Positions 4,200 to 63,785 of a stretch of DNA of 64,000 nucleotides are shown piece after piece. The notes under the pieces are model-generated. The model had not been told where the DNA came from and ran no database searches. It saw nothing but the letters and a program-made list of their open reading frames with translations. The first letter of the stretch is position 1, and every line of letters begins with the position of its first letter. Source of the stretch: a virus; the IMG/VR virus record IMGVR_UViG_3300031718_000001, positions 1 through 64,000 of that record; one strand, 5' to 3'. The translations under genes were made by a program, and so were the position numbers.

Positions 4200-6323
4200 G
4201 TGGCCATCAGCCGCTGGGAGACCCCGGATACGGCACAGGCCGGGCCGCTGGACGTGATGGCCTGGTTCGACGGGCCGCCGGTTCCCGACCCGATCACTTT
4301 CATGATCGGCGAGGACTGGCTGGACAAGCCGAACCTGTACCCGCGCCAGGCCACGCTGATCAAGATCATCTTCCTGCGGGATGACCTGTTCACGGAGTAC
4401 GACCGCCGGGTCATCGCCGAGTGGCAGCAGCGGTTCACCGAGACCAACCCGGACGCCGTGGACAATAAGTTCGACGCGCGGACGAAAGGCCTCCAGCCGG
4501 ACCTGTTCGAGCGGATCGCCTATCTCAAGGCGCGCGGCTACCGGTGGTTTCCCGAGCTGATCATCGCGATCGGCCGCCGCGGGTCCAAGGGCTACCTGTC
4601 CGCGCTGTGCATGGCCTACGTGCTGTGGAACTACCTGTCCAAGGGCAACCCGCAGGAGTACTACGGCATCGACTCGAACAAGCCGCTGGCCTGCGCGGTG
4701 TTCGCCGGCAAGAAGCAGCAGGCGATCGAGAACCTGTGGGGCGACCTGTACAGCGTGCTGACCACGGCGCCGTGCTTCACCGGCTACATCAGCGAGGCCC
4801 AGGTCGAGTCGCTGACCATCTACGCGCCGTACGACTTCGTGCGGATGCACAAGCTGGCCCAGCGGGGCATCGCCTCCAGCAAGGACATGGCCACGTTCCG
4901 GGTGGTGCCCCGCGAGTCCACCCCCATCGCGCCCCGCGGGCCGGCCGGCTGCATCCTGGCCTTCGATGAGGCCGCGCACGTGAAAAACGCGGGCGTGACC
5001 CGCGAGTTCGGCATCGTGTACGGCGCGGCGAAGCCGTCCCTGGACCAGTTCGGCACCGACGGCTTCGTGGTGCTGCCCTCCAGCACCTGGGAGATGATCG
5101 GCAAGTTCTACGAGCTGTGGGAGCTGTCGCTCCAGCGCGAGCAGGACGGCGAGGACGGCGAGTACGTGCCGGCCTACCCGGACAAGTTCATGGTCCAGCT
5201 CGAATCCTGGGCGATCTACGAGGACTGGGAACTGGCCCCGCTGCTGCCGCTGTTCCCCGGGGGGTTCACGGGCGACCTGGACGAGTACGACCCGGAGGCG
5301 CTCCCCCGGCTCGGCAAGCTGAAGGGCGCCATCCAGGCCTATGACGAGGGCATGGCCCGCGAGGAGAAGGCTAACCCGGACACCTTTGCCGTAGAGAGGA
5401 GATCAGACTGGGCGACCGCGATGGACGCCTACCTGAACGCAGCCAGGATCGACGCGATGTTCGAGCCGTGGACTGACCGCCTGCCGGAGAACGGGCGCCC
5501 CGAGCTGGTCATGCAGACCCGCGGCCCGCTGTCGGTCACCTACACCGCGCACGGCGACCCCTCGTCGGTGAACTGCCGGTTCGGCCTGGCGGTCGCGCAC
5601 ACCGAGCACGACGACGCGGGCCTGGAGCATGCGGTCTTCGACCTGATCCACTTCTGGGATCCGGCCGACTTCGAGGATCACACCATCGACTATGACGAGG
5701 TGCGGGACTGGATCTTCGACAACGTGATCATCCGGTTCATGCCGGATGAGATGACCTTCGACCAGTTCAACTCGGTCGCCAGCGTCCAGGCCCTCCAGAA
5801 GAAGGTGCGCGGCGAGCGGCTGCCCAAGAACATCGTGGTCTACGAGCGCACCGCTACCGCCCCGCTGAACTGGATGACCTGGGAGATGTTCAAGGCGGCG
5901 CTGAACATGGGGTTCGTGCACAGCCCGGCGCATGCCGAGGCCAAGGACGAGCTGCGGTTCGTGCAGAAGCCCGAGGGCGTCCAGAAGGTCGTGCCGGCCT
6001 CGACCGGCCCGGTGCAGACCAAGGACATCGCCGACTGCATCGCGATCGTGACCGCCCGGCTGCTCGGCGAGCAGATGAAGGCCTACCTGGCCAAGGACCT
6101 GAAGAACCAGCGCCCGCACGTGTCGCAGTTCGGCGGCCAGGACGCGCTCGACCGGTTCAGCCCCGAGCACATGAACCCGTACGCCGCCTCGCTGGGCGTC
6201 CCGTCCGGTATCCGCGGCGGCCTGGCGCGGGGCATGAGGCCGGCCCCGGTGGGCAGGGGAGGCAGGACCGGCGGCGGCCGTCTGGGCATGAGCCCGCTCG
6301 GCGCTCGCCGTCACCGCTCGTGA
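4200..6323 (+). CDS. terL: terminase large subunit
   Basis: 707 aa, GTG start. The ATPase that pumps DNA into the prohead and cuts it. The P-loop is a phage variant, GRRGSKGY at about residues 125-132, preceded by a hydrophobic strand; Walker B is CILAFDEAAHV at about 251-261 with the DE pair (256-257). The C-terminal half has acidic strands suiting an RNase H-fold nuclease: VFDLIHFWDP near 480 and the region around FMPDEMTFDQFNS near 520. The tail (last about 45 residues) is Gly/Arg-rich. Length fits the family. The portal gene is not next door but at 61479, which is unusual. Confidence 0.93.
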   Translation: MAISRWETPDTAQAGPLDVMAWFDGPPVPDPITFMIGEDWLDKPNLYPRQATLIKIIFLRDDLFTEYDRRVIAEWQQRFTETNPDAVDNKFDARTKGLQPDLFERIAYLKARGYRWFPELIIAIGRRGSKGYLSALCMAYVLWNYLSKGNPQEYYGIDSNKPLACAVFAGKKQQAIENLWGDLYSVLTTAPCFTGYISEAQVESLTIYAPYDFVRMHKLAQRGIASSKDMATFRVVPRESTPIAPRGPAGCILAFDEAAHVKNAGVTREFGIVYGAAKPSLDQFGTDGFVVLPSSTWEMIGKFYELWELSLQREQDGEDGEYVPAYPDKFMVQLESWAIYEDWELAPLLPLFPGGFTGDLDEYDPEALPRLGKLKGAIQAYDEGMAREEKANPDTFAVERRSDWATAMDAYLNAARIDAMFEPWTDRLPENGRPELVMQTRGPLSVTYTAHGDPSSVNCRFGLAVAHTEHDDAGLEHAVFDLIHFWDPADFEDHTIDYDEVRDWIFDNVIIRFMPDEMTFDQFNSVASVQALQKKVRGERLPKNIVVYERTATAPLNWMTWEMFKAALNMGFVHSPAHAEAKDELRFVQKPEGVQKVVPASTGPVQTKDIADCIAIVTARLLGEQMKAYLAKDLKNQRPHVSQFGGQDALDRFSPEHMNPYAASLGVPSGIRGGLARGMRPAPVGRGGRTGGGRLGMSPLGARRHRS

Positions 6324-6765: not shown

Positions 6766-9700
6766 ATGGCGGACGACTTCCTCATGCATTTCGAGGCTGC
6801 CGGCGAGCCCGAGCAGCCATGGGCGTCTATCCGCACGGCCGGGCCGGATGAGTACGGCAAGTACGTCTACCCCGACTACCCGGCCAAGACCCCCGCCACC
6901 CTGGCGCGTTACTTCCGCAAGAACGAGCCGGACTACTACGCGGCCGTCCGCCAGCACGTCGAGGCGCACGGCGTGCAGGAGCCCGTGCTGCTCCGGTACC
7001 GGGACGGGGGCGGCCACCCGCTGAAGAAGCCGGTGGTGATGGGCGGTCATCACCGTGCTGCCGCGGCCTGGGAACTGGGCCAGTCGCTCCCGGTCGGCGA
7101 CTACGACAACCCCGAGCACTACGAGGCATCCAATACGGGCTTCGCCCAGCAGTGGTGGCGTGACCATTCCGCACTGAAGGAGCAGTACACCGACCCGCGC
7201 ACCCGGACAGCCGCAGTGCGGCCCGGCCGGGGCGAGAAGGCCTGCCTGTGCTGCAAGGGCAGCGGCTCGCACAATGACGGGTCCGAATGTGATCAGTGCG
7301 ACGAGTCCGGCTTGCTGCACAGCAACGAGGAGCAGCGCTACTGTCCTGGCCAGCCGCAGCCGAGGCGCCGCCGCTGGCGCGAGCCGGTCACCGGAAGCTT
7401 CGAGGATGCCGAGCCGGAGGCCAGGCAGGCACGGTTCGACCGGGCGCGGGAGTGGCTGGAGCGCAACACCGATGCTCACTCGGGAACCGTGGACATCCCT
7501 GCGCACTGGGGGCATCACGTAGATAACCAGACGATCCACCACATCCTGGATACGCACGGCTGGCCGCGTGACGAGTCCGACCGCGAGGACCACTGGAGCC
7601 ACATCGAGCCTGAGAACTTCCCGGTGCACCAGCCGATCCACCAGCATCAGGGCTTCGTCTGGCCTGGCGGGGTCGAGGACAAGATGATCGGGGCGATGGA
7701 GGATTCGCGTCCGTGGGACGACCAGCCAGCTAAGATCGTCCGGCACGAGGGGAACAGCTACCTGCTCGACGGCCATCACAAGCTCGCGGGTGCGCGGCTC
7801 CTCGGCCAGGACAGCATCGAGGCGCACGTCTTCGACACCAGCAAGCCGGAGACCTACCCGGAGCACTGCCGGGAGTGCCAGGACGAAGGCGTTGAGATGA
7901 CGAGGCGCCCGGAGACGGCGCACACCGCTGCCCGCCCCGGTTACCAGGGACAGCACCACCCGCTCTCCTGGAATGCGCCGATGCACGCAACTGAGGATGC
8001 GCCCGGGTTCTACGGCGATCCAGGGCGCCACACCTACGGCGAGGGCGCCGATGAGACGCTAGACCAGTTCCGGAAGGCCCGGGGGAACCCGGACCACCCG
8101 GTGCGCATCTACCGGACGATGCCGCTCCATGCCGGGGGCACGATCAACACGGGCGACTGGGTATCGCTCGGCCGCGAGGCCCCCCTCGACCTGGCCGAGC
8201 AGCGCAACTACCACGACCCGGACTCGCTGTTCACCGATCCGCTGCCCGACCACAGCCGTTATCACACGTATGAGGCCACGGTGCCAGCCCGCCACGTCCG
8301 CAACGGCGGCGACATGATGGAGTGGGGCTACTGGGGCGATCCTGTCCAGGGCGAGCACTCACCGGGCTGCTGCGACCAGCACACGGCCGGGCTTGATGTT
8401 TCTGCGAGCGCCGGGGACGAACCTTCAAGTGACTATAAGGATCTTCTCGGTCACTTCGAGGCAGCCGACTCTTCTGTTTATCACGGTGTGCATATTCCAC
8501 CAGGCGGCCCGGAAGACGATCCCGAGTGGGCATCGCCGATGCACGACGTGCGCAATGCGATGCCGCGGGCTTACGCCGGCTGGGATGCTGAGTCCGGCCG
8601 TCAGCTACAGGCATCCGAGGGAAAGCCCGATCACCCGGTCACGGTATACCGGGCGCTGCCCGCTGACCGCCGGGAATTCAACACCGGGGACTGGGTGACC
8701 ACCTCGGGCGCCTATGCCCGCCAGCACGGCGAGAGCAACCTGCGCCACGCCCCGTGGCACGTGGTGAGGGCTGATGTCCCGGCCAGGCACCTGTTCAACG
8801 AGGGCTACATGACCGAGTGGGGCTACCAGGGACCGCACATCGCGAATCCTGCGGTCCACTACGTCGGCCATGATCACGACCGCAGGGAGGCTTCATTGGA
8901 AGCCGAAGCGTCCGGAGACGACTACCGGCTGACGCACGGTGCGCCAGGTCCGCAGTCCGGTCACCTGCCGCTGCACCACTACACGGGCGAGGACCCCGAC
9001 AGCCATGTGCGCGTCTACCGCTCGGCTCCGGCCGGAACCGAGTCCATTAACACGGGCGACTGGGTATCGCTCAACCCGGCCTATGCCCACCGGCACGGCT
9101 ACGGCGAGGCGAGGGACGGCGGGAACTGGCCCGTCTACACGGCTGAGGTCCCGCAGCGGCACGTGCACTGGGACGAGAACGACCCGGACGAGCACGGCTA
9201 CAACGGCCCGGCCCTCCATCACCCGGACGTGCATGACGAGGAGACCGGCGCGCTGCACGACTGGGACGACTACCACGAGGCGCATCCGCACGGCCAGGAG
9301 GCGTGGCTGGGCGGCTCGGTGCACCTGCCCGTTGCCGAGCACGACTTTGCCCACGACGAGTTCGAGTGGGAGCCCGACCGGGCCGACACGGTGCTCAGCG
9401 CGGCCCGCGAGCAGGGCGCGCTCCATAACGCCCGCTGGCGCGATGACATCTACCCGGCCCGTGAGGATGCCGAAGGCCACGCGGCCCAGCACCTCGGCGC
9501 GGTACCCGAGGGCCACCGGCTGACCGCGTTCACCGTGCACCGCAACGACGCCGGCGCGATCGACGACATCGGGCTCCATCATTACGAGCCGTCAGATGAC
9601 CCGTATGTGCGCCGCCCTTACGCCTTCGCCGATCTGAGTGAGCACAATTACAGCCACCCGGCGGTCGAGGAGGCCGGGCGCGGCCATCAGGCAGCCTACG

Positions 9701-11517
9701 AGCCGCTGTCCAGGGAGTACTCGTCCGGCCGGATGCTCGTGTCGGACATCCGCCGCCCAGGTGGAGGGCTGCTGTCCGAGCGGCCGTACACCCAGCGCCA
9801 GATGGCTGCCGATATCAGGCGCAACGGGGTCGAGCAGCCGCTCGCCATAGAGCACACCACCGCCTACGGCGGCAACCCGACTGTGATCAACGGGCTGCAC
9901 AGGCTGGACGGCGCCCAGCGCGCCGGGATCGCCGATGTGCCGGTGGTAGTCAAGCACCTGCCCGGCCGCCTGCCTCCGATGCTCAGCCGCGAGCCTGCTA
10001 CCGAGCAGGAGTTCAATGATGCCTATGACACCGAGCGCAGCGGCAGGTGGGCAGGCGAGCCTGGGCTGACCGCCGAGGCCGAGGTTCTGGAGCCGTCAAA
10101 GCGAATCCGCAGGCGAGCGGTCAGGCAGCGCGATGGAGACGAGCGCAGTTTCGGCGAGTACACCATGCGGTACCGGACGACTGACGAAGGCGAGCGCAGG
10201 CCCCGTCACGTTATCGAGGTATTCCACCCAGATAGCGATCAGCCAGTCGGCAAGCTGTCCTGGCGCGGCAGCACCCGGAAGGTCGAGAGTATCGATGTCA
10301 GCGGCCCGCATCAGCGTAAGGGCCTGGCTACGGCCATGTGGGGCTGGTCGCAGGAGATGTCCCCGAAGGCCAGGCACTCGGACGATCAGACCGATCAGGG
10401 CAAGGCATGGGTGAAGTCGCTGAGCGCGCATGGCGCTTCGTCCAGCACGCCGGCTACTGCTGCGCTGGAGCCCGGGGCCGAAGATTCCGGGATCTCCGTA
10501 GAGCACCATGAGACGTTTTCTGGCGGAGCGACTTACCCGAATCTGCACACGTTTACCGCGCGCCATCCGGACGGGACTGAGGCACAGCTCAGCTACATGC
10601 TGTCTAAGCGCAACGCCAGGGGCGTAGTTGATCGCGCCTACATCCCCAAGGACCACGCGCAGTCCCTGGGAGTTCCTCTCGTCCAGGCCGCCAGGCGGCT
10701 GCACCCGGGTGTCTTCGTGAGGGGGATGCCGGGCCTTGACGAGGACTGGGGTCAGCACCTGCCGTCCGTTACCTCGCTGCACCGGAACCTGACGATAAAG
10801 CTGGAGCCGGCCGACCGGGCTTACGTTCATGACGAGTCGGTGCCCAGGGCGCACCGGGCTAGGTTCCTGATGGACCTGATGGCCCGCAGCGGGCCGTCGA
10901 TGCACTGGGCCTCCCAGCGGGGGCAGGTCGCGGCCGAGGAGAGCTTCGGGGACCATGAATTCCGTTCGCCCGAGCACACGCAGATCTCGCTCAGCGCAAG
11001 CCCGCCGTCGGCCGAGCACGTGGAGACCGATCCGGAGCGGATCTCCCGGAACGGCGGCTACGCCTACCAGGCGCCTGACTGGGAAGTTCCGCTGAAAGAA
11101 GGTGCTCCGGTGAACGTCGGATCGATCCGCTGGCGTACCGGTACGGCCGGGTGGACGCAGCACCGGTTCAGGAGCGGCCACCAGTTCACTGCCGGAGTGC
11201 ATCCGGCCGAGCTAGCATCCGCCCCGGCGCGGACGGCGCAGCTAGCCGTTCGGCCGGCAGAGCAGATCAGCGTCATCTCTTCCTGGATTCCGGAGAACAA
11301 CGCCCAGGTCCAGGAGATGCTGGATGACTTCCCGTTGCTGTTCATCGCCCTGGCCGACGGGCTGACCTCGCTGGCCGCGCGGATAGACGGGCCGGTGGAC
11401 GAGCGGATCCCGGGCGCGCTCACCGCGATGGCCGCCGCGTGCCAGTCCGCCGCCGAAGACGCCCGGGACACAGCAGCACGCGCACACGAAACCGCAGGAG
11501 CATGGCATGCCTCTTGA
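6766..11517 (+). CDS. giant polyvalent protein 1 (ParB-like, ART-like repeats, GNAT)
   Basis: About 1583 aa. Start chosen at 6766 because the ATG lies 7 nt after the promoter -10; an alternative is the ATG at 6709 behind AGGAGG. Visible modules: ParB-like fold with GGHHRAAAA near residue 93; a DnaJ-type CxxC..CxxC cluster near 161-180; a second ParB-like LLDGHHKLAGARLL near 333-346; three tandem ART-like repeats near 444-525, 624-690 and 746-812, each with a xVRVYR start, GDWVS/GDWVT and an E(W/H)GYxG end; a third ParB-like segment (VINGLHRLDGAQ) near 1040-1051; a GNAT core (PHQRKGLATAMWGW) near 1182; an HDESVP-to-GAPV domain shared with giant 2; and a helical C-terminal domain from about 1500. 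This fits the 'polyvalent protein' class of phages, thought to be delivered to or made early in the host. Individual catalytic activities are inferred. Confidence 0.75.
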   Translation: MADDFLMHFEAAGEPEQPWASIRTAGPDEYGKYVYPDYPAKTPATLARYFRKNEPDYYAAVRQHVEAHGVQEPVLLRYRDGGGHPLKKPVVMGGHHRAAAAWELGQSLPVGDYDNPEHYEASNTGFAQQWWRDHSALKEQYTDPRTRTAAVRPGRGEKACLCCKGSGSHNDGSECDQCDESGLLHSNEEQRYCPGQPQPRRRRWREPVTGSFEDAEPEARQARFDRAREWLERNTDAHSGTVDIPAHWGHHVDNQTIHHILDTHGWPRDESDREDHWSHIEPENFPVHQPIHQHQGFVWPGGVEDKMIGAMEDSRPWDDQPAKIVRHEGNSYLLDGHHKLAGARLLGQDSIEAHVFDTSKPETYPEHCRECQDEGVEMTRRPETAHTAARPGYQGQHHPLSWNAPMHATEDAPGFYGDPGRHTYGEGADETLDQFRKARGNPDHPVRIYRTMPLHAGGTINTGDWVSLGREAPLDLAEQRNYHDPDSLFTDPLPDHSRYHTYEATVPARHVRNGGDMMEWGYWGDPVQGEHSPGCCDQHTAGLDVSASAGDEPSSDYKDLLGHFEAADSSVYHGVHIPPGGPEDDPEWASPMHDVRNAMPRAYAGWDAESGRQLQASEGKPDHPVTVYRALPADRREFNTGDWVTTSGAYARQHGESNLRHAPWHVVRADVPARHLFNEGYMTEWGYQGPHIANPAVHYVGHDHDRREASLEAEASGDDYRLTHGAPGPQSGHLPLHHYTGEDPDSHVRVYRSAPAGTESINTGDWVSLNPAYAHRHGYGEARDGGNWPVYTAEVPQRHVHWDENDPDEHGYNGPALHHPDVHDEETGALHDWDDYHEAHPHGQEAWLGGSVHLPVAEHDFAHDEFEWEPDRADTVLSAAREQGALHNARWRDDIYPAREDAEGHAAQHLGAVPEGHRLTAFTVHRNDAGAIDDIGLHHYEPSDDPYVRRPYAFADLSEHNYSHPAVEEAGRGHQAAYEPLSREYSSGRMLVSDIRRPGGGLLSERPYTQRQMAADIRRNGVEQPLAIEHTTAYGGNPTVINGLHRLDGAQRAGIADVPVVVKHLPGRLPPMLSREPATEQEFNDAYDTERSGRWAGEPGLTAEAEVLEPSKRIRRRAVRQRDGDERSFGEYTMRYRTTDEGERRPRHVIEVFHPDSDQPVGKLSWRGSTRKVESIDVSGPHQRKGLATAMWGWSQEMSPKARHSDDQTDQGKAWVKSLSAHGASSSTPATAALEPGAEDSGISVEHHETFSGGATYPNLHTFTARHPDGTEAQLSYMLSKRNARGVVDRAYIPKDHAQSLGVPLVQAARRLHPGVFVRGMPGLDEDWGQHLPSVTSLHRNLTIKLEPADRAYVHDESVPRAHRARFLMDLMARSGPSMHWASQRGQVAAEESFGDHEFRSPEHTQISLSASPPSAEHVETDPERISRNGGYAYQAPDWEVPLKEGAPVNVGSIRWRTGTAGWTQHRFRSGHQFTAGVHPAELASAPARTAQLAVRPAEQISVISSWIPENNAQVQEMLDDFPLLFIALADGLTSLAARIDGPVDERIPGALTAMAAACQSAAEDARDTAARAHETAGAWHAS

Positions 11518-14500
11518 CGAGCCCGGGTTCCCGAACCCGCATACAGGTCAGGATGAGTGGTTCCACGGCACCAGGGCTTACCCCGAGGACCTTTCGCAGC
11601 ACGGGTTCATGGATCCGATGGACATAGACCGCGGCGGCTACGAGGACCCGGACGCCGAGACGACGGGCCACTGGAATGCCCTGCTCGGCACGCATTTCAC
11701 CGCCGATCACAAGGTGGCCCACGAGTTCGCCACCGGAGAGCATGACTCGGGCGAGAACGATCCCGGCGGCGAGCCTTGGCGCCCTGCCTACCAGGGCGTC
11801 GTGCATGCCCGGCTGCACCTGCGGAACCCGAAGATCTATGACTCCGAGCACGACATGGATCACGAGGCCTACGAGCACGAGTTCGCGGCCGGGAACCACC
11901 CGAGCAATCACGTCCCGCTGCTCGACAGCGACGACGAAGACGACCGGTACGAAGCCGAGGACATGTGGCCGCACGCTGACCGGCTGCACCAGGAGTACGG
12001 CAACCGGGAGATCCCGCGCAGCGCCTACACCCCGTACGGGACGGACGGCGCCGGCCACCCAGAGCGCACCCTGTGGCTGAGCACTCACCCCGACCGGCAT
12101 GACATTGCCGAGCGGTTCCGGCAGCGGCTCCAGGCCCAGGGTCATGACGGCGTGGTCTACGGAAACGAATACGAGAAGAGCCAGCACGGCCGCAAGGCGG
12201 TCTCGGCAATCGCCTTCCACCCGGATCAGGTCGATATCCGGCAGCACCACCATGCCGAACACACGTGCATGGACCCGGAGGAGGCCGCAGCGCACCGCGG
12301 CCGGCTTCCCGGCCTCGGTCAGGAGGCGCTGCCGGGCCTCGATGACTACAGCATCTCGCGCCAGGCGCTAGTGCAGCACTTCGCCGCAGACGAGGAGTTC
12401 GACCACCCCGAGTTCGGCAACTTCGACGAGGAGTACGGCCTCTATCACCATCCGGACCACGGCTGGCACTGCCATGCCTGCGGTGACTTCCACGACGACG
12501 CGGAGACGGCCACCAGGCACCAGGACTCCTATACCGACTGGGGCCGGGTGCACCCGGGTCTGCCTGAGCACATGCACCGCGGGCTCGCGCTCCAGCTCCC
12601 GGCGGAGCTGCATGACGCGGTGCACGACGAGAGCGCCCCGGTTGAGCGGCGCGGCCGGATGCTCCTGGAACACCTCGGCGAGGACGGTCACGGCACCCAC
12701 TGGACGCCAGACGAGGAGCAGGCCGCTCATTATGCCGGGGTCAGCGCTCACCAGAACGCGGGCACCTGGCACGGCGGCAGCGGCCAGACCCACGTCATCC
12801 TGCACGCCCGCAGGCCCGCCATCGACGACATCGAGACCGACCCTGACACGCTGGCTGATCAGGACGTGATCAGCTTCGGCGACCATGATGACGCTGAGAT
12901 CCCGATCCGCCAGGGCGCCCCCGTGCACCTGACCGGGATCTCCTGGAAGCGCGCGGACGCGCCTGATACAGCATGGCAGCAGCACGACCTTCCGCAGACG
13001 CATCTGGGAGCACTGGAAATGACCGCAGGTGACGCAGATGAGGGCCTGACCTGGGACGAGATCGGCGAGCGGCACCCGGCGCTTTACGGTGACCCCGAGA
13101 TCCACGGCGAGGCGGCCGAGGGCGCTGACGGTGAGGGGATCGGCGATGTAGCCGGCCACCTGGCCTACGACCGGCCTGGGCACAACTACGCCGAGGGCAC
13201 CGGGGAAGAGCACCCGTCCTACACCGGCCTGCGGTTCTACCCGCGCACCATAGACCCCGCCCGGATCGACTACGCCCGCCACGGCAGCGATGACCAGCGT
13301 GTCCGCAACGCCCGCGCCGGCTACTCCGGCGCGCACCCGGACCACGTGCCCCCGCTGATCCTCGTGCACCGCCACGGCGTGTTCCAGGTCGCTGACGGGC
13401 ACCACCGCGGCGAGGGCGCCAGCCTGGCGTGGCGGCCGGTCGCCGCCTATGTCGCCTACTCACCGCACGAGCACGAGCCGTTCAGCGATGGCGAGCGCGG
13501 CCCGTTCCACGGCGCCGAGACCGAAGAGCAGCACGCCCTGGAGCGGGACACCGAGGGCGGCCGGATGAGCTACCCCGGTTTCCCGCACACAGCCGAGACC
13601 CCGCACCCGGTAACGGCGGCCCTGGTCAGCCACTTCGCCGAGCTGGAGCCGCCGAAGTACCACCCCGAGGCGCGGTGCCCGATGTGCGGGGGCCGCAACT
13701 ACGAGCGCGAGGAGCGGCCGGGATACATCCCGGAGGGGTCCAGGGCGCCGGCCTACTGCCGGAACTGCGGGGAGGCCTTCGACGCGAGCAGGTCCGGCCG
13801 CGAGATCGCCGAGGAGCGCGAGCGTGAGCACCGCGAGTGGGAGGAGGCCACCAGGAACCGCCGGTACAACGGCGAGGCCCTGTTCCACGGCACCAGGTCC
13901 GAGCTGCACCCCGGAGACCTGCTGACCCCTGACGAGGCCGAGCGCCACCGGGCGCACCCGGACGAGGACAGCCGGGGGTACATGCACGCCACGACCGTCG
14001 GCGAGGAGGCCTACGGCTGGGGCGAGCGCGCAAGCGGCGCCGAAACGCATGAGCGGATGACCGAGCTGGGCCGGGGCAGGCCCATGCCCGCCGGTCATTC
14101 GCAGGGCGAGGCCTACCGGCCGCGGGTCTACCAGGTTGAGCCGACCGGCCCGGTCGAGTACGACCCGAACGGCGAAGGCGAGGCATTCCGCAGCGCGCAT
14201 CCGCTGCGCGTCGTCCAGGAGGTACACCCTCTGGTCTGCTATCACGAGGATCATGAGGGCGAGTACCACTGGCCCGACCACGAGCACTACGAGTTCCTCA
14301 AGCAGCAGGAAGACGACGAGCACGAGGATGACGACGACGACTGGGGTCACGAAGCGGCTGCCATAGCGAGCGCGGACGAGCACGACGGCGATGGCTACAC
14401 CGTCTGCGACCAGGGCCACGAGCACTGGGGCCTGAACGGCGCCGCAGGCCTGCTGGTGCGCCACCACGACGACGACGGGGAGACCAGGTACCTGCTCCAG

Positions 14501-15598
14501 CACCGGTCGCCGTACGTCCAGCACGGCCGCACCTGGAGCACGCCAGGTGGCGCAATGGGCAGCGGCGAGACGCCCGAGCATGCCGCTCTGCGCGAGGCCC
14601 GCGAGGAGATGGGTGAGCTGCCCGGTGACCTGGAGCACCACCACACGGTCACCGATGACCACGGCGGATGGTCCTACCACACCGTGGTGATGGACTCGCC
14701 GACCAGGTTCCGCCCCAGCGGAAGCGGCGAGACCGACTGGGAGAGCGAGGGCAGCGGCTGGTTCACCCCTGGCGAGATCCAGGGCCTGCCTCTGCATCCC
14801 GGGTTCCGGTCGAGCTGGGACAAGGTGCAGCACTCAGGATCGCTCCGGGTCGTGGCCCTGGACGACGTGCCCGCCTTCACCCACCGCTACCTCTCGGCCC
14901 AGCCAGACGGCGGGTACGCCGAGCGCGAGGAGCTGGTCCAGGGGCCGTTCTACCACGGCAGCCGGTCGAAGCGGCTGGGCGAGGGCGCCGAGCTGACTCC
15001 CGGCCGCAAGACCAACGGCTGGGGCGACGAGGGATCGAAGTCGCAATGGGTGCACTTCACGACTGACCTGGGCGGGGCAGCCGAGTACGCGCGCCAGGCA
15101 GGCGGACACGTCTATGAGGTCGAGCCGCACGGTGACGTGCAGATGGGCTACAGCGGCAGCGATTGGAAGTCGAAGGGGGTGCTGCGCGTCCGCCGCGTGG
15201 TCCCGCCGGAGGAGATCGCCAGGCACCAGGCCCGGACAGGCCAGCTCATCGTCGCCGCGAACGTCTCCGATCATGTCCTGACCCGGGGTGCCCCGATCCC
15301 TGCCGCGGCTGACGTGCATGCGGCTATCGGCGCCTGGACGCCGCAGAACGCCCGCGAGGTGCATGAGTGCCTGGATGAGTTCCCGCTGCTGTTCCGGGCA
15401 CTGCACGAGGGCCTGGCCGAACTGGCGCACGAACTCGAAGGCACACCGGTCAGCGTCCATCTCATCGCCATCGTGCGCAGGATGGCAGCGTGCTGCCAGG
15501 GCGCGGCCGAGGACGCCACGGAGGTTGCCGGACGCCCGCTGGATGGCGCAGAAGGTATGTGGGAAGGATCGCGAGCGTCAGTCGGCCCAAAAGCCTGA
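11507..15598 (+). CDS. giant polyvalent protein 2 (ART/Arr-like, ParB-like, NUDIX)
   Basis: 1363 aa, ATG overlapping giant 1 by 11 bases. Modules in order: ART-like DEWFHGTRAYPEDL at 17-30 with its partner strand GHDGVVYGNEYEKS near 212; a C2H2-like HCHACGDFHDD segment near 321; the HDESAP-to-GAPV domain also found in giant 1; ParB-like ADGHHRGEGA near 630; a CPMCGG...CRNCG zinc ribbon near 724-755; an Arr-like (rifampin ADP-ribosyltransferase type) domain from FHGTRSELHPGD near 792 to YQVEPTGPVEYDPNG near 875; a complete NUDIX box, G-x5-E-x7-REAREEMGEL, near 1015-1037; another Arr-like unit beginning FYHGSRSKRLGEGAE near 1148; and a C-terminal helical domain like that of giant 1. The NUDIX box is the most certain catalytic call. 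Confidence 0.8.
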   Translation: MPLDEPGFPNPHTGQDEWFHGTRAYPEDLSQHGFMDPMDIDRGGYEDPDAETTGHWNALLGTHFTADHKVAHEFATGEHDSGENDPGGEPWRPAYQGVVHARLHLRNPKIYDSEHDMDHEAYEHEFAAGNHPSNHVPLLDSDDEDDRYEAEDMWPHADRLHQEYGNREIPRSAYTPYGTDGAGHPERTLWLSTHPDRHDIAERFRQRLQAQGHDGVVYGNEYEKSQHGRKAVSAIAFHPDQVDIRQHHHAEHTCMDPEEAAAHRGRLPGLGQEALPGLDDYSISRQALVQHFAADEEFDHPEFGNFDEEYGLYHHPDHGWHCHACGDFHDDAETATRHQDSYTDWGRVHPGLPEHMHRGLALQLPAELHDAVHDESAPVERRGRMLLEHLGEDGHGTHWTPDEEQAAHYAGVSAHQNAGTWHGGSGQTHVILHARRPAIDDIETDPDTLADQDVISFGDHDDAEIPIRQGAPVHLTGISWKRADAPDTAWQQHDLPQTHLGALEMTAGDADEGLTWDEIGERHPALYGDPEIHGEAAEGADGEGIGDVAGHLAYDRPGHNYAEGTGEEHPSYTGLRFYPRTIDPARIDYARHGSDDQRVRNARAGYSGAHPDHVPPLILVHRHGVFQVADGHHRGEGASLAWRPVAAYVAYSPHEHEPFSDGERGPFHGAETEEQHALERDTEGGRMSYPGFPHTAETPHPVTAALVSHFAELEPPKYHPEARCPMCGGRNYEREERPGYIPEGSRAPAYCRNCGEAFDASRSGREIAEEREREHREWEEATRNRRYNGEALFHGTRSELHPGDLLTPDEAERHRAHPDEDSRGYMHATTVGEEAYGWGERASGAETHERMTELGRGRPMPAGHSQGEAYRPRVYQVEPTGPVEYDPNGEGEAFRSAHPLRVVQEVHPLVCYHEDHEGEYHWPDHEHYEFLKQQEDDEHEDDDDDWGHEAAAIASADEHDGDGYTVCDQGHEHWGLNGAAGLLVRHHDDDGETRYLLQHRSPYVQHGRTWSTPGGAMGSGETPEHAALREAREEMGELPGDLEHHHTVTDDHGGWSYHTVVMDSPTRFRPSGSGETDWESEGSGWFTPGEIQGLPLHPGFRSSWDKVQHSGSLRVVALDDVPAFTHRYLSAQPDGGYAEREELVQGPFYHGSRSKRLGEGAELTPGRKTNGWGDEGSKSQWVHFTTDLGGAAEYARQAGGHVYEVEPHGDVQMGYSGSDWKSKGVLRVRRVVPPEEIARHQARTGQLIVAANVSDHVLTRGAPIPAAADVHAAIGAWTPQNAREVHECLDEFPLLFRALHEGLAELAHELEGTPVSVHLIAIVRRMAACCQGAAEDATEVAGRPLDGAEGMWEGSRASVGPKA

Positions 15599-18396
15599 GC
15601 CGGACGGCAGCCGGTGACTGGGATCCGTACGAGGAGACCTGGGACGAGCACCGGGCCGGCCAGGAACCGGATGAGCCGCTGCCTTCCGAGACGGACGAGT
15701 ACTGGAGCCCGCCGCACCTCTACCACGGCACAGCCGAGGACCTGAAGCCAGGCGATTCAGTAGAGCCCGGCCATGGCCCGAACTTCGGCGGCGGCCAGTC
15801 CATGGACCCGCGGCACACTCATGCCTATGCGACCCCTCATATCCGTTCTGCCTGGGAGTATGCAGAGAACGCAGCCGCCAGGCGAGGCGGTCGTCCCCGG
15901 GTCTACGAGGTAGGCCGCACGGAAGATATGCTGCCCGACCCGGAGAGCGGCCACGCCGTCGGCGGCCCCCAGATGATCCCCCACCCGGGCTGGCGCAGCA
16001 AGACCGGCTTCCCCGTGCTCCGGGAACTGGAACCGCACGAGCTGGGCGATTACACGGCCGCTGCGCACTGGGCACCGTCGTCGGGCATTTTCGCGCCGAC
16101 TACCGGGCTCGACCGCCGGCTGTTCGACGGCCGCGAGCATCTGCGCCCGGTCGCCCGCGGGGCCATCATGGAGAAGCTCGACCGCTGCCTCCGCACCGAC
16201 ACCGGCCTGACCGGATCGGACTGGCAGGACTGGCTGAAGGTGTACCTGGCCGGCGGGTCAGCGAGCGAGTGGGCCGGCGACCGGCCGAACGAGGCGGCCC
16301 AGGACCTGGACGTGCTGCTCGGCGTGGACTATGCCGGGGCACGCAGGAACACCCCCGGGTTCCGGGAGATGACCGACGCCGAGATCGACGCCGCGCTCAA
16401 CACGGGCCTGCGGAGGTGCTTCAACACCGACGGCTGGAGCCCGGACGGCTTCGAGGGCACCTGGAACCTGACCGGCTACGTCAACCCGCAGGCCTGGGAC
16501 ATCCGCTCGATCAAGCCCTATGCCGCCTGGGATCTCTCGGACTCACGCTGGGCTGTCCGGCCGCCGCACCTGCCAGATCATGCCCTGGCCGACTTCAACC
16601 CGGCCGTGCTGGCCGAGGCCAGGGCCATCGCCTCCCAGGCCCGCGCCATCCTGCGGCTGCCCGAGGCGCTCCGGATCCGCGAGGCCCGCGCGCTCTGGGA
16701 CCGCATCCACGACTCCCGGCGCTCAGCGTTCTCGGAGGAGGGCGAGGGCTGGACTGACCCGGGCAACGTCATCGAGAAGTGGCTGGCCTACGCCCCCGGT
16801 AACCTCCTGGGCCAGATCCGGGAGCTGGCGCTAGCGAAGACGGCGGGGCTAGTCCAGCCGCGGCCGGAGGATTTCGCTCACGGTGTCTATAACAATGACA
16901 CCAGCGATTTCCGGCTGCACGGCGACGATTACATCTTGCATCACAGCCATCCGAAGGTGATCACGGCCTACGTCCGCGGGCCGGAGCTGGTGGCTCCAGA
17001 CCAGCCGAACTACACTCGCGGCCACCAGCGCCCTTACGAGGTCGGGTACTTGAGCTGGCTCGGCGGTGATACCCCGAAGATCTACAAGACCTTTGTGAAG
17101 GAGGATCACCGCCGTAAGGGCGTGGCCTCCGCGATGCTCGGCTTCGCCCGGGAGATCGAGCCCAGCCTCCAGCACTCGCACGCCCTGACTGAGGACGGTC
17201 ACGCCTGGGCCGAGAAAACGGCTGCCCACGTACCCGGAGATGAGCCGGTCGTCCGGACGCACATGGATCTCGGCTGGAGCCCGGACGAGTGGGCTGATGC
17301 CCGGCGTGACCCGTGGCACGCTTCAGCTAAGCTCGCTCAGGCCGAAGTCCGGCACTCCCACCCGAAGCTCCGCATGCCGCTTCCGCGCGGCGAGGAGGGC
17401 GACGCCATGGTGGGTCACCTGCTGCGCTACGCCGGGTACCAGGGGCCTACCGAGGGCGCGTTCGCCGCCAGGCACCCGGACCCGTCGAAGATGACCTCGA
17501 ACCCGTCCTGGCTGAACGGCAAGCCGGGCGTGGCCCTCCACCCGGACAGGTGGGACTACGGCACGGCCGCGCACGAAGCCGCCCACCATGTCGTGATGTA
17601 CAACCACGCAGTCGCGCGGAATGAGCCGCAGACCGACGAGCAGGTGCACGGCCCGGAGTGGGCTCGCGCCTACGGCCAGGCGCTCAACAAGATCTCGAAG
17701 CACGCCGGGGACGACTTCGTGTACCACCACGGCCGGTTCCGCTCGATGATCGACGAGGGACTCCAGTATGTCCGGCCGGGCGATCTCGATGACGCCGAGA
17801 AGCGCCTGCCGCCCCGCCGCTGGGTCGATGACGAGGTGTACCCCGCTCCAACGCGGCTGGCTTCAGCGTTGGAACCGCGGGCTGGCGCTGCAACCCGCGT
17901 TGGAGTCACCGGCTACGACGGCCTGACGAAACGCTCGGGCATGATCTACCTCGACCTGCCCGAGGGCGCCGTCCGCCGCCTGCCGGGCGGCGTGGACGAC
18001 CACCACATCACGGTTGTCTACCTCGGGAAGAACGTGACCGACGAGGCCTTCGAGGAGGCGTGCCGCCGGGCACGGCTGGCCGCGGGAAAGACCGGCCCGC
18101 TGCACGGATTCCTGAACGGGACCGAGACCTTCGAGCCCAGCGATTCCAGCGGGGAGAAGGTGCCGGTGTTCGTGCCGGCCTACATCCCGGGCATCGGAGC
18201 GCTGCGCCGGGAACTGGAGGACCTGTCGGGAAGTGAGCACCGGCAGTACCGCCCGCACGTTACGCTGGCCTATCTTGAGCCAGAGGATGATCTTCCCGCC
18301 CCGCATCCGAAGGTGGATGTGAGCTTCGGGCGGCTGCACGTAAAGCGCGGGGACCAGGTGGTAAGTTTCCCGCTGGGCCATTCGCAGTGGGGGTGA
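15559..18396 (+). CDS. giant polyvalent protein 3 (ART-like, NTase, GNAT, SprT-like, 2H)
   Basis: About 945 aa from a GTG preceded by AGAAGG and overlapping giant 2 by 40 bases; the start is uncertain. Modules: Arr/ART-like YHGTAEDLKPGD near 55 with RPRVYEVG near 113; a nucleotidyltransferase-like core GGSASEWAGD...DLDVLLGVDY near 231-257; a GNAT core EDHRRKGVASAMLGF near 515; a SprT-like metallopeptidase with H672-E-x-x-H676 (TAAHEAAHHVV) plus HGPEW about 25 residues later; and a C-terminal 2H phosphoesterase with both signature motifs, H816-I-T and H900-V-T. 2H enzymes act on 2',5'-linked or cyclic-phosphate RNA and on ADP-ribose cyclic phosphate. The order resembles phage polyvalent proteins. 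Confidence 0.75.
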   Translation: MGRIASVSRPKSLSRTAAGDWDPYEETWDEHRAGQEPDEPLPSETDEYWSPPHLYHGTAEDLKPGDSVEPGHGPNFGGGQSMDPRHTHAYATPHIRSAWEYAENAAARRGGRPRVYEVGRTEDMLPDPESGHAVGGPQMIPHPGWRSKTGFPVLRELEPHELGDYTAAAHWAPSSGIFAPTTGLDRRLFDGREHLRPVARGAIMEKLDRCLRTDTGLTGSDWQDWLKVYLAGGSASEWAGDRPNEAAQDLDVLLGVDYAGARRNTPGFREMTDAEIDAALNTGLRRCFNTDGWSPDGFEGTWNLTGYVNPQAWDIRSIKPYAAWDLSDSRWAVRPPHLPDHALADFNPAVLAEARAIASQARAILRLPEALRIREARALWDRIHDSRRSAFSEEGEGWTDPGNVIEKWLAYAPGNLLGQIRELALAKTAGLVQPRPEDFAHGVYNNDTSDFRLHGDDYILHHSHPKVITAYVRGPELVAPDQPNYTRGHQRPYEVGYLSWLGGDTPKIYKTFVKEDHRRKGVASAMLGFAREIEPSLQHSHALTEDGHAWAEKTAAHVPGDEPVVRTHMDLGWSPDEWADARRDPWHASAKLAQAEVRHSHPKLRMPLPRGEEGDAMVGHLLRYAGYQGPTEGAFAARHPDPSKMTSNPSWLNGKPGVALHPDRWDYGTAAHEAAHHVVMYNHAVARNEPQTDEQVHGPEWARAYGQALNKISKHAGDDFVYHHGRFRSMIDEGLQYVRPGDLDDAEKRLPPRRWVDDEVYPAPTRLASALEPRAGAATRVGVTGYDGLTKRSGMIYLDLPEGAVRRLPGGVDDHHITVVYLGKNVTDEAFEEACRRARLAAGKTGPLHGFLNGTETFEPSDSSGEKVPVFVPAYIPGIGALRRELEDLSGSEHRQYRPHVTLAYLEPEDDLPAPHPKVDVSFGRLHVKRGDQVVSFPLGHSQWG

Positions 18397-18402: not shown

Positions 18403-18717
18403 TTGCGCGCTAGCGGCGTTCTCATAGCCATCGGGTACTCATGCCTGGCGGCCAATACCAAGCTGCCGATGCGGCACTGGCGCTGGCTGTGGGCAGCCGC
18501 CGTGCTCAAGATCCTCATCGGCGTCCCGCTCTTCGCCGCCCTGCTGATCCCGTACCTGCTGTGCAAGGGCTTCGTCTGGGCGATGGATGCCCTGGCCGGC
18601 CTCTTCTTCAGCATCTACGTAAAGGCCCACAACAGGGACCTGGCCGGCTCGGGGTGGCAGATACGCACCGAGCGCGCTCCGGCTCCCCGGCTGAGCCCGG
18701 ACTGGCAGAAGCGGTGA
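18403..18717 (+). CDS. small membrane protein
   Basis: 104 aa from a TTG, the first start after an in-frame stop at 18394. Two hydrophobic helices, roughly AVLKILIGVPLFAALLIPYLL and FVWAMDALAGLFFSIYV (the former abbreviated at its ends), then a basic, proline-rich cytosolic tail. Ends in a four-base overlap with the next gene. Size and topology would also fit a holin-like protein, but there is no lysin nearby, so function is open. Confidence 0.55.
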   Translation: MRASGVLIAIGYSCLAANTKLPMRHWRWLWAAAVLKILIGVPLFAALLIPYLLCKGFVWAMDALAGLFFSIYVKAHNRDLAGSGWQIRTERAPAPRLSPDWQKR

Positions 18718-18980
18718 GCGAGGAGCAGCCCGAGCTGCCCCCGGTCACGTTCGCCAAGTGGCCGCAGCGCAAGTGCCGTCAGCCGATGACCACCGACGGG
18801 CTGATCGACCACTGGTGCGGGCTGCCCGAGCTGCACCCAGGCCCGTGCTGCCCTAGTACGCTCGCATCGGCGATCAGGCGGCGCCAGCAGTGGGAGTCCG
18901 TCCATCCGGGATGGGAGAAGCTCCAGGCCCAGGACGACCCGTTCGCCGATGTTACCCAGCGACTCCAGGAGGGCCGATGA
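18714..18980 (+). CDS. hypothetical cysteine-containing protein
   Basis: 88 aa, GTG start overlapping the previous stop. FAKWPQRKCRQPMTTDGLIDHWCG...HPGPCC suggests a small metal-binding or disulfide-like knuckle with the C-H-W-C-G...H..CC arrangement. No family recognised. Overlaps the next ATG by four bases. Confidence 0.55.
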   Translation: MSEEQPELPPVTFAKWPQRKCRQPMTTDGLIDHWCGLPELHPGPCCPSTLASAIRRRQQWESVHPGWEKLQAQDDPFADVTQRLQEGR

Positions 18981-19288: not shown

Positions 19289-19289
19289 C

Positions 19290-19385: not shown

Positions 19386-19394
19386 GAGCACGCC

Positions 19395-20123: not shown

Positions 20124-20130
20124 TGGTTTG

Positions 20131-20151: not shown

Positions 20152-20212
20152 ACCCTTGCAGGTATTGGCGTCGGGCTGACCCGGCTGTCGATTCCTTGCA
20201 CGCGGTGCTCAG

Positions 20213-61478: not shown

Positions 61479-63785
61479 GTGAGGATCGCCTACAGGGCCG
61501 GGGAAGGCGCCGCGCGCACCGCGAGCATGCAGCAGCTCTCGCGCGGGTTCGCCTTCGGGGCCAAGGGCCTGCGTGACGACCAGATGACCGATGAGGTCCG
61601 GGAGGCTCGCAAGAACCGGCGCGTCAACGCCCGACAGGGGATGCTCGCGCGGCGTACCGCCCTGGCCGGCGGGGCCTCGGCCGGGTTCTCGGACATCCAG
61701 TTCGCGACTGGCAGGCCGCGTGACCCGCTGTTCTACTGGCGTCAGAACAACTTGCCGTATGACTTCAGCCAGAACGAGGAGCTATCGAAGGTCCGGGCGT
61801 TCTGCCGCCTGCTGTACCAGACCGACCCCATCGTCGGTAGCTGCGTCGATATCTTCTCCAAGTTCCCGGTCATCGGCGCCCACCTGGAGTGCAAGGACCA
61901 GCGGCTCACCGAGTTCTACGAGGGCCTTTTCTTCGACGAGGACGGCCTCGACTACGAGGAGTTCCTCGTGGACATGGGCCGCGAGTACTACACCTCCGGC
62001 GAGGCGTGGCCTTTCGCGACGTTCAACGAGGACCTGGGGATCTGGGACGACGAGGAACTGCTGAACCCGGACGACATCAAGGTCGAGCGCTCCCCGTTCC
62101 TCAAGGAGCCGCGCTACTTCATCCGGCTGCCCTGGACCATCCGGCAGATCCTGACCACCCGGCAGCCCGCCTGGGAGTACAACAAGCTGATCCAGGAATA
62201 CCCGGAGCTGGCCGCCTACACGGCCGAGAACGCGTTCATGCCGGTCAGCAACATCCTCCTCAAGCAGCTCAGGTTCAAAGGTGACACATTCAACCTCCGT
62301 GGCCTGCCCCTTCTCACACGTGCCATGCGGTCAATGCTCCAGCAGGAGATGCTCAACACCGCGCTCGACTCGATTGCAGACCGGCTCTACACCCCCCTCA
62401 TCCTCTGCAAGCTCGGAGCCTCAGCCACAGACCTCGGCACTTCCGTACCCTGGATTCCCACCGACGATGACCTGGAGAACTTCGAGCTTGCCCTCGACGC
62501 TGCTCTGGCAGGCGACTTCCGAGCCCTGATCCACAACTTCGCGGTCGATATCCAGCCGGTGTTCGGCCGCGAGAACATGCCCGACCTCACCCCCGACTTC
62601 GAGCGGATCGAGGACCGGGTGCTCCAGGTGTTCGGGCTGAGCCGCACGTTCCTGATGGGCGCCCAGGAGGGCCAGACGTACGCGGCCGACGCGCTCAACA
62701 AGCAGCTCGTCGAGCAGCTCATGACCCAGTACCAGAAGTACCTCAAGAAGCACTTCCGCCAGCGCGCCATGGTCGTCGCCGAGGCCCAGGAGCACTACGA
62801 CTACGAGGAGCGCAACGGGCGCCGGTTCGTGGTCATGGAAGAAGTCCTGGAGGTAGACGAGGAAACCGGCGAACGGCGGATCACCGAGCAGCCCAAGCTG
62901 CTGGTACCCGAGCTGGGCTTCGCGGTGCTCAACTTCCGGGACGAGGACACCACCAGGCAGTTCACCGAGGCGCTGCGCGCATCCGGCATTCCTATCTCGG
63001 CCCGCACCCGGACCCGCGGGCTCGGCATGGACCTGGACGAGGAGCGCGAGCGGTCCCAGGACGAGGCCATCGCCGACATCATCGCCCAGGCCCGGACCAG
63101 GCGCCAGGCGTTCATCGAGCTGCGCAACGAGGGCCTGCCGATCCCGGCCGACCTCATGGCCGACTTCGCGCCGTTCGCCCAGCAGGAAGGCGTGCCCCCC
63201 GCGCTCGCCGCCGAACAGGTCATGATCGACCGGATGGGCATCCAGCCCGAGTCGCTGCCCGACCTCGCCCCGACACCCGAGGACATGGCCCAGGGCGAGA
63301 TGGCAGACGAGGAGATGGGCAACGCCCCGCCCGAGGGCGAAGGACCAGAGCCCGGCGAAGGCGGGATCGAGGACGACCCGCAGCGCCCGCCCGAGTCCGA
63401 CCAGGAGCGTGATCAGATGCCCAAGGCTGCCCGCAAGCGCAGCATGCCCAGGCAGGGCGCGCTGTTCCGGCGCACCGGGCGGGTCCGCCAGATGGCCGCG
63501 CTCGCCCGTGCCGTGGACGAGTCGGGCGAGGATGCCGAGCGCGCCCGGCGGATCGCCGCCGCTGCCGGAGAGGGGCAGGACGAGCAGGACCTGGCCGGGT
63601 TCATCCTCGAAGCGCACCTGCCCGAGTCCGAGGACCAGGCCCGCCGCGGCGACGCCTGGTACTCCGGGCCGAGCCTGCGGGCTTACCAGGCTCCTGCTCA
63701 CGTCGGGATCCGGTCACGCCTGGGCGTCACCGAGGAAGACAGCGACCTGCTCGACTACGACAGGTACGTCCCCGCCGCGCGCTAG
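61479..63785 (+). CDS. phage portal protein
   Basis: 768 aa, GTG start. The dodecameric ring through which DNA enters the head. Family signatures include DPLFYWRQNNLPYDFSQNEE, FCRLLYQTDPIVGSCVDIFS, EYYTSGEAWPFATFNED, PVSNILLKQLRF, ERIEDRVLQVFGLSRTFLMG and the long C-terminal helix region; the last about 150 residues are acidic/proline-rich then Arg-rich. Length is large for the family. Between about 62270 and 62530 codon choice changes (Leu CTC/CTT, ACA, TCA, GCA, GTA), unlike the CTG-rich flanks. Confidence 0.9.
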   Translation: MRIAYRAGEGAARTASMQQLSRGFAFGAKGLRDDQMTDEVREARKNRRVNARQGMLARRTALAGGASAGFSDIQFATGRPRDPLFYWRQNNLPYDFSQNEELSKVRAFCRLLYQTDPIVGSCVDIFSKFPVIGAHLECKDQRLTEFYEGLFFDEDGLDYEEFLVDMGREYYTSGEAWPFATFNEDLGIWDDEELLNPDDIKVERSPFLKEPRYFIRLPWTIRQILTTRQPAWEYNKLIQEYPELAAYTAENAFMPVSNILLKQLRFKGDTFNLRGLPLLTRAMRSMLQQEMLNTALDSIADRLYTPLILCKLGASATDLGTSVPWIPTDDDLENFELALDAALAGDFRALIHNFAVDIQPVFGRENMPDLTPDFERIEDRVLQVFGLSRTFLMGAQEGQTYAADALNKQLVEQLMTQYQKYLKKHFRQRAMVVAEAQEHYDYEERNGRRFVVMEEVLEVDEETGERRITEQPKLLVPELGFAVLNFRDEDTTRQFTEALRASGIPISARTRTRGLGMDLDEERERSQDEAIADIIAQARTRRQAFIELRNEGLPIPADLMADFAPFAQQEGVPPALAAEQVMIDRMGIQPESLPDLAPTPEDMAQGEMADEEMGNAPPEGEGPEPGEGGIEDDPQRPPESDQERDQMPKAARKRSMPRQGALFRRTGRVRQMAALARAVDESGEDAERARRIAAAAGEGQDEQDLAGFILEAHLPESEDQARRGDAWYSGPSLRAYQAPAHVGIRSRLGVTEEDSDLLDYDRYVPAAR

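What the first reader, a model, noticed from the sequence alone, without database searches (positions are those of the whole stretch)
6766..18396. Three adjacent giant polyvalent proteins, about 3,900 residues in all
Within 11.6 kb lie at least four ParB-like, several ART-like, a NUDIX, two GNAT, one nucleotidyltransferase-like, one SprT-like and one 2H-phosphoesterase module. 'Polyvalent proteins' are described from phages and conjugative elements as multi-effector proteins, but the tandem trio directly behind the terminase and this module set are, to my knowledge, not a standard arrangement.
Basis: partly seen in the sequence, partly recalled or inferred. Interest (0 to 1): 0.7.

Follow-up and report, generated by a model that had tools for sequence, protein, structure and literature searches.

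The report
Shuffling phage effector polyproteins behind terminase
A large uncultivated phage carries three giant chain-of-enzymes proteins beside its DNA-packaging gene; its relatives keep such giants in the same place but reshuffle the enzyme units, and short recurring sequences between the units look like sites where the phage's head protease could cut them apart before injection into the host.

Summary
The three giant ORFs exist (1,583 + 1,363 + 945 aa) and are polyvalent proteins in the sense of Iyer et al. 2017. Most modules are supported (2H, NUDIX, Arr/HYD-type ARTs, ParB-like, Polβ-type NTase, zincin); the two GNATs and the extra ART-like repeats rest on weaker evidence. The window belongs to a clade of ~162-kb, probably contractile-tailed actinophage-like viruses (terminase and portal 76-81% identical). 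In every relative whose contig runs past the terminase, one or more giant ORFs follow it, up to 2,805 aa. The position is fixed but the content is not: modules 30-75% identical recur in other orders and proteins. At module boundaries a short motif, [KRH][TE]A[ASGV], recurs: 63 observed against 13.5 in shuffles; 36 of 59 lie within 6 aa of a homology edge against 10.7 expected; permuted-letter controls are flat. It also marks the head-maturation protease and the virion-region giants, and it concentrates in head-block genes of cultured phages such as Gordonia phage Stormageddon. Best reading: effector polyproteins packaged in the head, cut at the junctions by the head protease, then injected. 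Packaging and cleavage are inferred, not shown. New variant of a known kind.

The parts
4200..6323 (+). large terminase, fixed upstream neighbour of the giants
   Evidence: phrog_2 6.3e-10; ~33% to Rhodococcus E3, Gordonia Stormageddon and Mycobacterium cluster C terminases; 76-81% to clade members
6766..11517 (+). giant protein 1 (W1), 1583 aa
   Evidence: N-terminus MADDFLMHFEAAG shared with relatives
6829..7179 (+). W1 ParB-like module 1 (aa 22-138)
   Evidence: MGGHHRAAAAW signature; phrog_498 1.4e-5; 55% to a G004 module
7210..7383 (+). W1 Zn-ribbon (aa 149-206)
   Evidence: CxxC pairs in the sequence; 74% to a G003 module
7399..7884 (+). W1 ParB-like module 2 (aa 212-373)
   Evidence: LLDGHHK signature; 45% to G001; phrog_33277 0.02
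8044..9237 (+). W1 three ART-like repeats (aa 427-538, 545-701, 711-824)
   Evidence: phrog_2579 2.8e-65, three stretches; YR..GDWV..E.GY alignment; weak PARP/KptA fold hits
9685..10059 (+). W1 ParB-like module 3 (aa 974-1098)
   Evidence: Pfam ParB_N 2.7e-4 sub-threshold; phrog_4715 1.2e-7; 71% to L041
10129..10431 (+). W1 GNAT-like module (aa 1122-1222), weak
   Evidence: 50% to G004, 43% to the W3 GNAT-like module; no Pfam hit
10744..11196 (+). W1 ART-like 'HR' module (aa 1327-1477)
   Evidence: alignment of 8 copies across the clade, invariant H22 R23; fold not confirmed
11263..11514 (+). W1 C-terminal helical domain (aa 1500-1583)
   Evidence: 46% to W2 end; ends the first giant of relatives; stand-alone copies in the record
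11507..15598 (+). giant protein 2 (W2), 1363 aa
11519..12256 (+). W2 HYD/Arr-type ART 1 (aa 5-250)
   Evidence: WFHGT start; 50% to G003
12536..13030 (+). W2 ART-like 'HR' module (aa 344-508)
12992..13615 (+). W2 ParB-like module (aa 496-703)
   Evidence: VADGHHR signature; 55% to L039; phrog_1033 0.6 only
13637..13786 (+). W2 Zn-ribbon (aa 711-760)
   Evidence: Pfam PaaD zinc ribbon 3e-5, below its curated cut-off
13874..14236 (+). W2 Arr-type ART 2 (aa 790-910)
   Evidence: Pfam Arr-ms 2.9e-15; NF033144 6.8e-11
14357..14848 (+). W2 NUDIX (aa 951-1114)
   Evidence: Pfam 3.7e-12; PDB 6uuf RenU 3.6e-24
14867..15196 (+). W2 Arr-type ART 3 (aa 1121-1230)
   Evidence: Arr-ms second stretch; NF000318; 58% to Streptomyces phage Frankenweenie gp344
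15290..15595 (+). W2 C-terminal helical domain (aa 1262-1363)
15559..18396 (+). giant protein 3 (W3), 945 aa
   Evidence: start supported by the N-terminal PKS[LV] shared with G003 and G004 second giants
15715..16029 (+). W3 Arr-type ART (aa 53-157)
   Evidence: Pfam Arr-ms 7.3e-6
16048..16848 (+). W3 Polβ-type NTase (aa 164-430)
   Evidence: GGS-x13-DLD; 58-63% in three relatives; fold pLDDT 70-95 over most of it; distant Streptomyces phage homologues
16966..17229 (+). W3 GNAT-like module (aa 470-557), weak
   Evidence: Pfam Acetyltransf_7 0.0062, 17 bits against cut-off 27; replaced by a ParB-like module at this place in L039
17242..17805 (+). W3 SprT-like zincin (aa 562-749)
   Evidence: HEAAHH; 62% to G004; confident fold
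17881..18387 (+). W3 2H phosphoesterase (aa 775-943)
   Evidence: Pfam 2.4e-7; Foldseek LigT/CPDase/Acb1; both HxT motifs intact; found in most clade giants
6832..6843 (+). junction motif RTAG before ParB-like module 1
7204..7215 (+). junction motif RTAA, ParB-like 1 / Zn-ribbon
7921..7932 (+). junction motif HTAA, ParB-like 2 / ART-like repeats
8380..8391 (+). junction motif HTAG, ART-like repeat 1 / 2
8884..8895 (+). junction motif REAS, ART-like repeat 2 / 3
14348..14359 (+). junction motif HEAA, ART 2 / NUDIX
15601..15612 (+). junction motif RTAA, start of W3
16837..16848 (+). junction motif KTAG, NTase / GNAT-like
17215..17226 (+). junction motif KTAA, GNAT-like / zincin
61479..63785 (+). 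portal protein (core virion marker)
   Evidence: phrog_2833 7.6e-139; ~80% across the clade

Best explanation
The trio is this phage's version of a fixed-position, hypervariable locus encoding polyvalent effector polyproteins. Shown by sequence: position after the terminase is conserved in the clade; modules are exchanged in units; a short order-specific motif [KRH][TE]A[ASGV] sits at module boundaries and recurs in the head-maturation protease and other virion-region giants. Inferred: the giants are built into the prohead, the head-maturation protease cuts them at the motif into separate enzymes (ARTs, 2H phosphoesterase, NTase, NUDIX, ParB-like nucleases/NTPases), and these are ejected with the DNA to disarm defences and reprogram the host before phage genes are expressed. 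A recurring LLxHFE peptide at the N-terminus of several first giants, and the shared C-terminal helical domain, are candidate packaging tags (inference). Rough step probabilities: packaged and ejected 0.6; cut at the motif by the head protease 0.4; anti-defence role of at least one module 0.6.
For: Fixed position in all eight contigs that extend past the terminase. Core genes 76-81% identical while giants share only shuffled modules. One clean swap between two junctions: NTase-[KTAG]-GNAT-like-[KTAAHVPGDEP]-zincin in W3 against NTase-[KTAA]-ParB-like-[KTAAHVPEDEP]-zincin in L039. Motif enrichment 63 vs 13.5 shuffled, maximum 26; 36 of 59 within 6 aa of a homology edge vs 10.7, p<=0.0002, permuted-letter controls flat. 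Out-of-sample giants: 6 vs 0.5, 8 vs 1.5, 6 vs 1.2, 8 vs 1.4. In the record's proteome 20 of 25 [KRHY]TA[ASG] fall in six proteins: W1, W3, ORF 22134-23747, portal, 68537-73201 giant, protease. The protease carries it just after its catalytic domain (aa 68-211, phrog_18299 1.8e-21; motif at aa ~232-235 in four phages). In Stormageddon, ORFs with two or more [KRH]TA[ASGV] are only gp8, gp9 (7 copies), gp12 and protease gp13; in Rhodococcus E3, the structural-protein region gp70 and prohead protease gp77. Codon use at the motif resembles background. Phage polyvalent proteins lie near virion genes and are thought to be injected (PMC5512222); head proteases cutting injected head proteins at short motifs are established for T4 (PMC9958956) and SPN3US (PMC10052503).
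Against: No virion proteomics or cleavage data for this clade. The motif was noticed before it was tested, so the first statistics are post hoc; only and the cultured phages are out of sample. P3 is not strictly basic: [LIVMF][TE]A[ASGV] also sits near edges, though it is not over-abundant. W2 has no [KRH]TA[ASGV] copy, only HEAA, MTAG and VTAA. In E3 and Nappy the whole-proteome excess is small (15 vs 11; 16 vs 9). The trio is ~43 kb from the portal gene. A flexible-linker preference could mimic a cut site.
Confidence: 0.45

Rival explanations
1. Ordinary polyvalent proteins packaged and injected at full length or processed by their own zincin domain, as Iyer et al. propose; the TA[AG] motif is only a preferred flexible linker.
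For: W3 has a zincin (HEAAHH) and zincins are the commonest polyvalent domain (PMC5512222). N4 vRNAP and plasmid polyvalents travel uncut (same source). Linker regions are disordered in the model.
Against: The G003 giants have the motif but no convincing zincin HExxH; the motif is also in the head protease, ORF 22134-23747 and cultured phage head proteins. Letter order matters: permuted patterns of the same composition are neither enriched nor edge-associated.
Confidence: 0.3
2. The motif marks a recombination seam: a shared short DNA sequence used for module exchange, with no protein-level function.
For: Modules are exchanged between motif copies; motif copies sit at homology edges.
Against: Thr and Ala codons at the motif follow roughly background usage (ACC 52% vs 63%, GCC 44% vs 52%), and the 12-bp sequences in the window differ from each other. 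The motif also occurs in proteins that are not shuffled, such as the protease.
Confidence: 0.12
3. Late-expressed cytoplasmic enzymes that act during the phage cycle and are not packaged.
For: No proteomics; gene ~43 kb from the portal; some modules occur as solo genes in other phages away from late structural genes (Frankenweenie gp344).
Against: Always next to the terminase; head-region proteins share the motif; a related fourth giant lies between portal and protease.
Confidence: 0.13

Closest known systems
Polyvalent proteins (Iyer et al. 2017, PMC5512222)
   Same: Many disparate enzymatic domains in one polypeptide; ART, ParB-like, GNAT, 2H, zincin and NTase domains all catalogued there; late-gene context
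   Different: Fixed slot directly behind the terminase in a clade, extensive module shuffling between relatives, a recurrent junction motif shared with the head protease; Polβ NTase was reported there only from conjugative-element polyvalents, here it is in phages
T4 internal proteins and Alt (N-terminal targeting peptide, gp21 cleavage; PMC9958956)
   Same: Proposed logic: targeting peptide, head-protease cut, ejection of an ART with the DNA
   Different: Here many modules per chain and predicted internal cuts; nothing tested
SPN3US/phiKZ head proteins cut by a prohead protease (PMC10052503)
   Same: Short cleavage motif repeated in head proteins, protease self-cleavage
   Different: Different motif ([KRH][TE]A[ASGV]; the SPN3US sites listed end in E, e.g. 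ASE, AVE, ALE); here proposed to separate enzymes, not to remove propeptides
P1 DarB/DdrB antirestriction proteins (PMC9024508, PMC5512222)
   Same: Very large packaged defence-countering proteins; DdrB has ParB and zincin domains and is processed
   Different: No sequence relation was tested; P1 splits the functions over several genes
Gordonia phage large 2H-containing proteins (GMA2 'putative structural protein', MelBins, Tardus)
   Same: Predicted structures match the W3 model; large chains with a 2H domain
   Different: Matched mainly over the 2H domain; gene position not compared

Membership tests
Polyvalent proteins | several domains of unrelated biochemical activity in one chain | tested here: met
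Polyvalent proteins | domains from the catalogued set (ART, ParB, GNAT, 2H, zincin) | tested here: met
   GNAT is weak
Polyvalent proteins | encoded among late/virion genes in phages | tested here: met
   adjacent to the terminase; fourth giant between portal and protease
Polyvalent proteins | delivered with the DNA into the host | not testable with these tools
   needs virion proteomics
Polyvalent proteins | ParB of the DdrB-like subfamily (lineage-specific residues) | not tested
   only the GxHR signature and ParB-family hits were seen
Head-protease-processed internal proteins (T4 IP/Alt, SPN3US E proteins) | recurrent protease motif in head proteins, actually cleaved | tested here: inconclusive
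   motif enriched and boundary-located; cleavage itself unknown
Head-protease-processed internal proteins (T4 IP/Alt, SPN3US E proteins) | N-terminal capsid targeting peptide | tested here: inconclusive
   MxDxLLxHFE-like peptide at the N-terminus of several first giants and at internal junctions; no functional test
Head-protease-processed internal proteins (T4 IP/Alt, SPN3US E proteins) | encoded head-maturation protease present | tested here: met
   75245-78985 of the record, phrog_18299 1.8e-21
ParB partition proteins | ParA partner next to the gene | not tested
   no ParA was named among the neighbours scanned, but not every neighbour was scanned

The most novel reading that the evidence does not exclude
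A plug-and-play injected-effector cassette: a phage lineage keeps a slot behind its terminase where effector modules are swapped between standard junction peptides that double as targeting and cleavage signals, so that the capsid-maturation protease dices each polyprotein inside the prohead into many free enzymes for ejection.
Probability: 0.35. Interest if true: 0.78.

Novelty: new variant of a known kind. Interest (0 to 1): 0.55.

Why it matters
Polyvalent proteins raise an open question: how do domains with different targets get free of one another? Iyer et al. proposed built-in zincins. Here a different and directly testable answer appears: a common junction motif shared with the head protease. 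Because the motif is also seen in the cultured Gordonia phage Stormageddon, it can be tested without cultivating the clade. If right, the motif would let injected effectors be parsed from sequence alone, and the slot would be a natural library of early anti-defence enzymes (for example the 2H domain, whose fold is shared with the anti-CBASS enzyme Acb1).

Tried and rejected
Viral-contig scan with W1 alone found nothing and with W3 only one contig, because the giants are not conserved end to end; the terminase scan worked. A first gene-calling script failed on file names. MAFFT of unordered module fragments misaligned them; only the better-behaved alignments were folded. PDB profile searches with the ART alignments gave nothing usable, and the repeat alignment hit no Pfam family. 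An interior-versus-exterior test of the motif gave only a modest signal (48-49% outside against 32%), because shared blocks span several modules; distance to homology edges was the better test. HEAAH was excluded as a motif copy because it is the zincin active site. The structure of W1 22-845 is low confidence (pLDDT 55); its matches are treated as weak. The DNA-seam reading was set low after the codon check. No published cleavage data were found for the lineage.

Full report
Observation. The window is the first 64 kb of a 165,085-base IMG/VR virus record, 68% GC. After the terminase ORF 4200-6323 (phrog_2) come three overlapping + strand ORFs: 6766-11517, 11507-15598 and about 15559-18396, 3,891 residues in all.

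What the modules are. NUDIX and 2H are solid. Four YHG[TS] modules are Arr/HYD-type ARTs; three carry family hits, and this agrees with the HYD-type ARTs described in polyvalent proteins (PMC5512222). The triple W1 repeat matches phrog_2579; its conserved YR..GDWV..E.GY pattern and weak PARP/KptA fold hits make an ART-like fold likely but not proven. Four ParB-like modules with a GHHR-type signature are present with family support from moderate to weak. The W3 NTase, zincin and 2H fold with high confidence (pLDDT mostly 70-97), while most of the linkers and the GNAT-like region are below 50. The GNAT labels therefore stay weak.

Who the phage is. Terminase and portal are ~33% and 36-39% identical to those of Rhodococcus phage E3, Gordonia phage Stormageddon and the Bixzunavirus group; E3 and Stormageddon carry tail-sheath genes, so these are contractile-tailed. 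Close kin are uncultivated: terminase 76-81%, portal ~80%.

The locus is fixed, its content is not. Relatives encode, in the same slot: G001 1,584 aa plus smaller ORFs; G002 1,882 + 1,807; G003 1,993 + 1,799; G004 2,484 + 2,805; a more distant contig 1,172; three further contigs end inside a first ORF. The block ends at conserved small genes and a uracil-DNA glycosylase (~52% identical). Modules recur at 30-75% identity in different order and in different proteins. In L039 a ParB-like module replaces the GNAT-like module of W3 exactly between two junctions, KTAA/KTAG on one side and KTAAHVP[GE]DEP on the other; in G001 the NTase is an ORF of its own. The 2H module is present in the giants of nearly every relative examined. 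A helical C-terminal domain ends W1, W2 and the first giant of the relatives, and stand-alone copies lie at 41883-42188 and at 146745-147089 of the record.

The junction motif. [KRH][TE]A[ASGV] occurs 63 times in 14 giants against 13.5 in composition-preserving shuffles (maximum 26), whereas patterns with the same letters in another order stay at expectation. After excluding the zincin HEAAH, 36 of 59 copies lie within 6 residues of a homology edge against 10.7 expected (p<=0.0002); permuted controls show nothing. I noticed the motif before testing it. Giants not used to define it repeat the result. Within the whole record, 20 of 25 [KRHY]TA[ASG] copies fall in six proteins: W1, W3, ORF 22134-23747, the portal, the 1,554-aa giant 68537-73201 and the head-maturation protease 75245-78985. 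In the protease it lies just behind the catalytic domain in four phages. In cultured Stormageddon and E3 the ORFs with two or more copies are head-region genes, including both proteases; in Nappy they include a ParB-like protein and a 1,170-aa protein before the portal, though the proteome-wide excess is small in E3 and Nappy. Codon choice at the motif is close to background, so the conservation is of the peptide rather than of a DNA word. A second peptide, LLxHFE, forms the N-terminus of several first giants and recurs inside them, often right after TAA.

Mechanism. T4 directs internal proteins into the prohead with an N-terminal targeting peptide, and gp21 then trims them and the ART Alt (PMC9958956); SPN3US head proteins are cut at short motifs by a prohead protease that also cuts itself (PMC10052503). 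Iyer et al. already proposed that polyvalent proteins are injected and must be separated, naming the internal zincin as the likely agent. Here the motif is present in giants without a convincing zincin (G003) and in the head protease itself, which favours the head protease as the agent. Packaging, cutting and ejection remain inferences; no experiment on this clade is known to me.

Verdict. Known class, new variant: a positionally fixed, module-shuffling locus with a shared candidate cleavage peptide.

Noticed in passing
record G000 68537-73201 (L006:5537-10201): Fourth polyvalent-like protein, 1,554 aa, between portal and head protease; aa 88-317 match W2 275-482 (30%, E 5e-13), conserved start and end in relatives
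   Followed up: partly
record G000 75245-78985 (L006:12245-15985): Head-maturation protease with an inserted extra domain (phrog_3842, aa 449-639) and acidic low-complexity stretches
   Followed up: partly
window 41200-41496, 41883-42188 and record 146745-147089: Small helical proteins; the latter two match the C-terminal domain of W1/W2, the first looks similar by eye
   Followed up: partly
window 22134-23747: 537-aa protein with four [KRHY]TA[ASG] copies, conserved neighbour after the UDG in relatives; no family hit
   Followed up: partly
window 18403-21193: Conserved tail of the block: small genes and a uracil-DNA glycosylase (Pfam UDG 7e-29)
   Followed up: partly
window 26570-59254: Long run of mostly small minus-strand genes between the giants and the portal region, including a C5 cytosine methylase at 27721-29163
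   Followed up: no
window 32992-33963 and 42661-43839: Proteins with SGGKDS / GVDS-like ATP-pyrophosphatase signatures, by eye only
   Followed up: no
L034:5985-6773 (G001): The NTase module as a stand-alone ORF beginning MTEAARYLPSSGIFG
   Followed up: partly
G001, G002, G004, G005, G007 just after the terminase: Small Zn-ribbon gene (61-99 aa, CGHPxxxHSNGxTxCxAxxC) between terminase and first giant, not called at this place in the window
   Followed up: no
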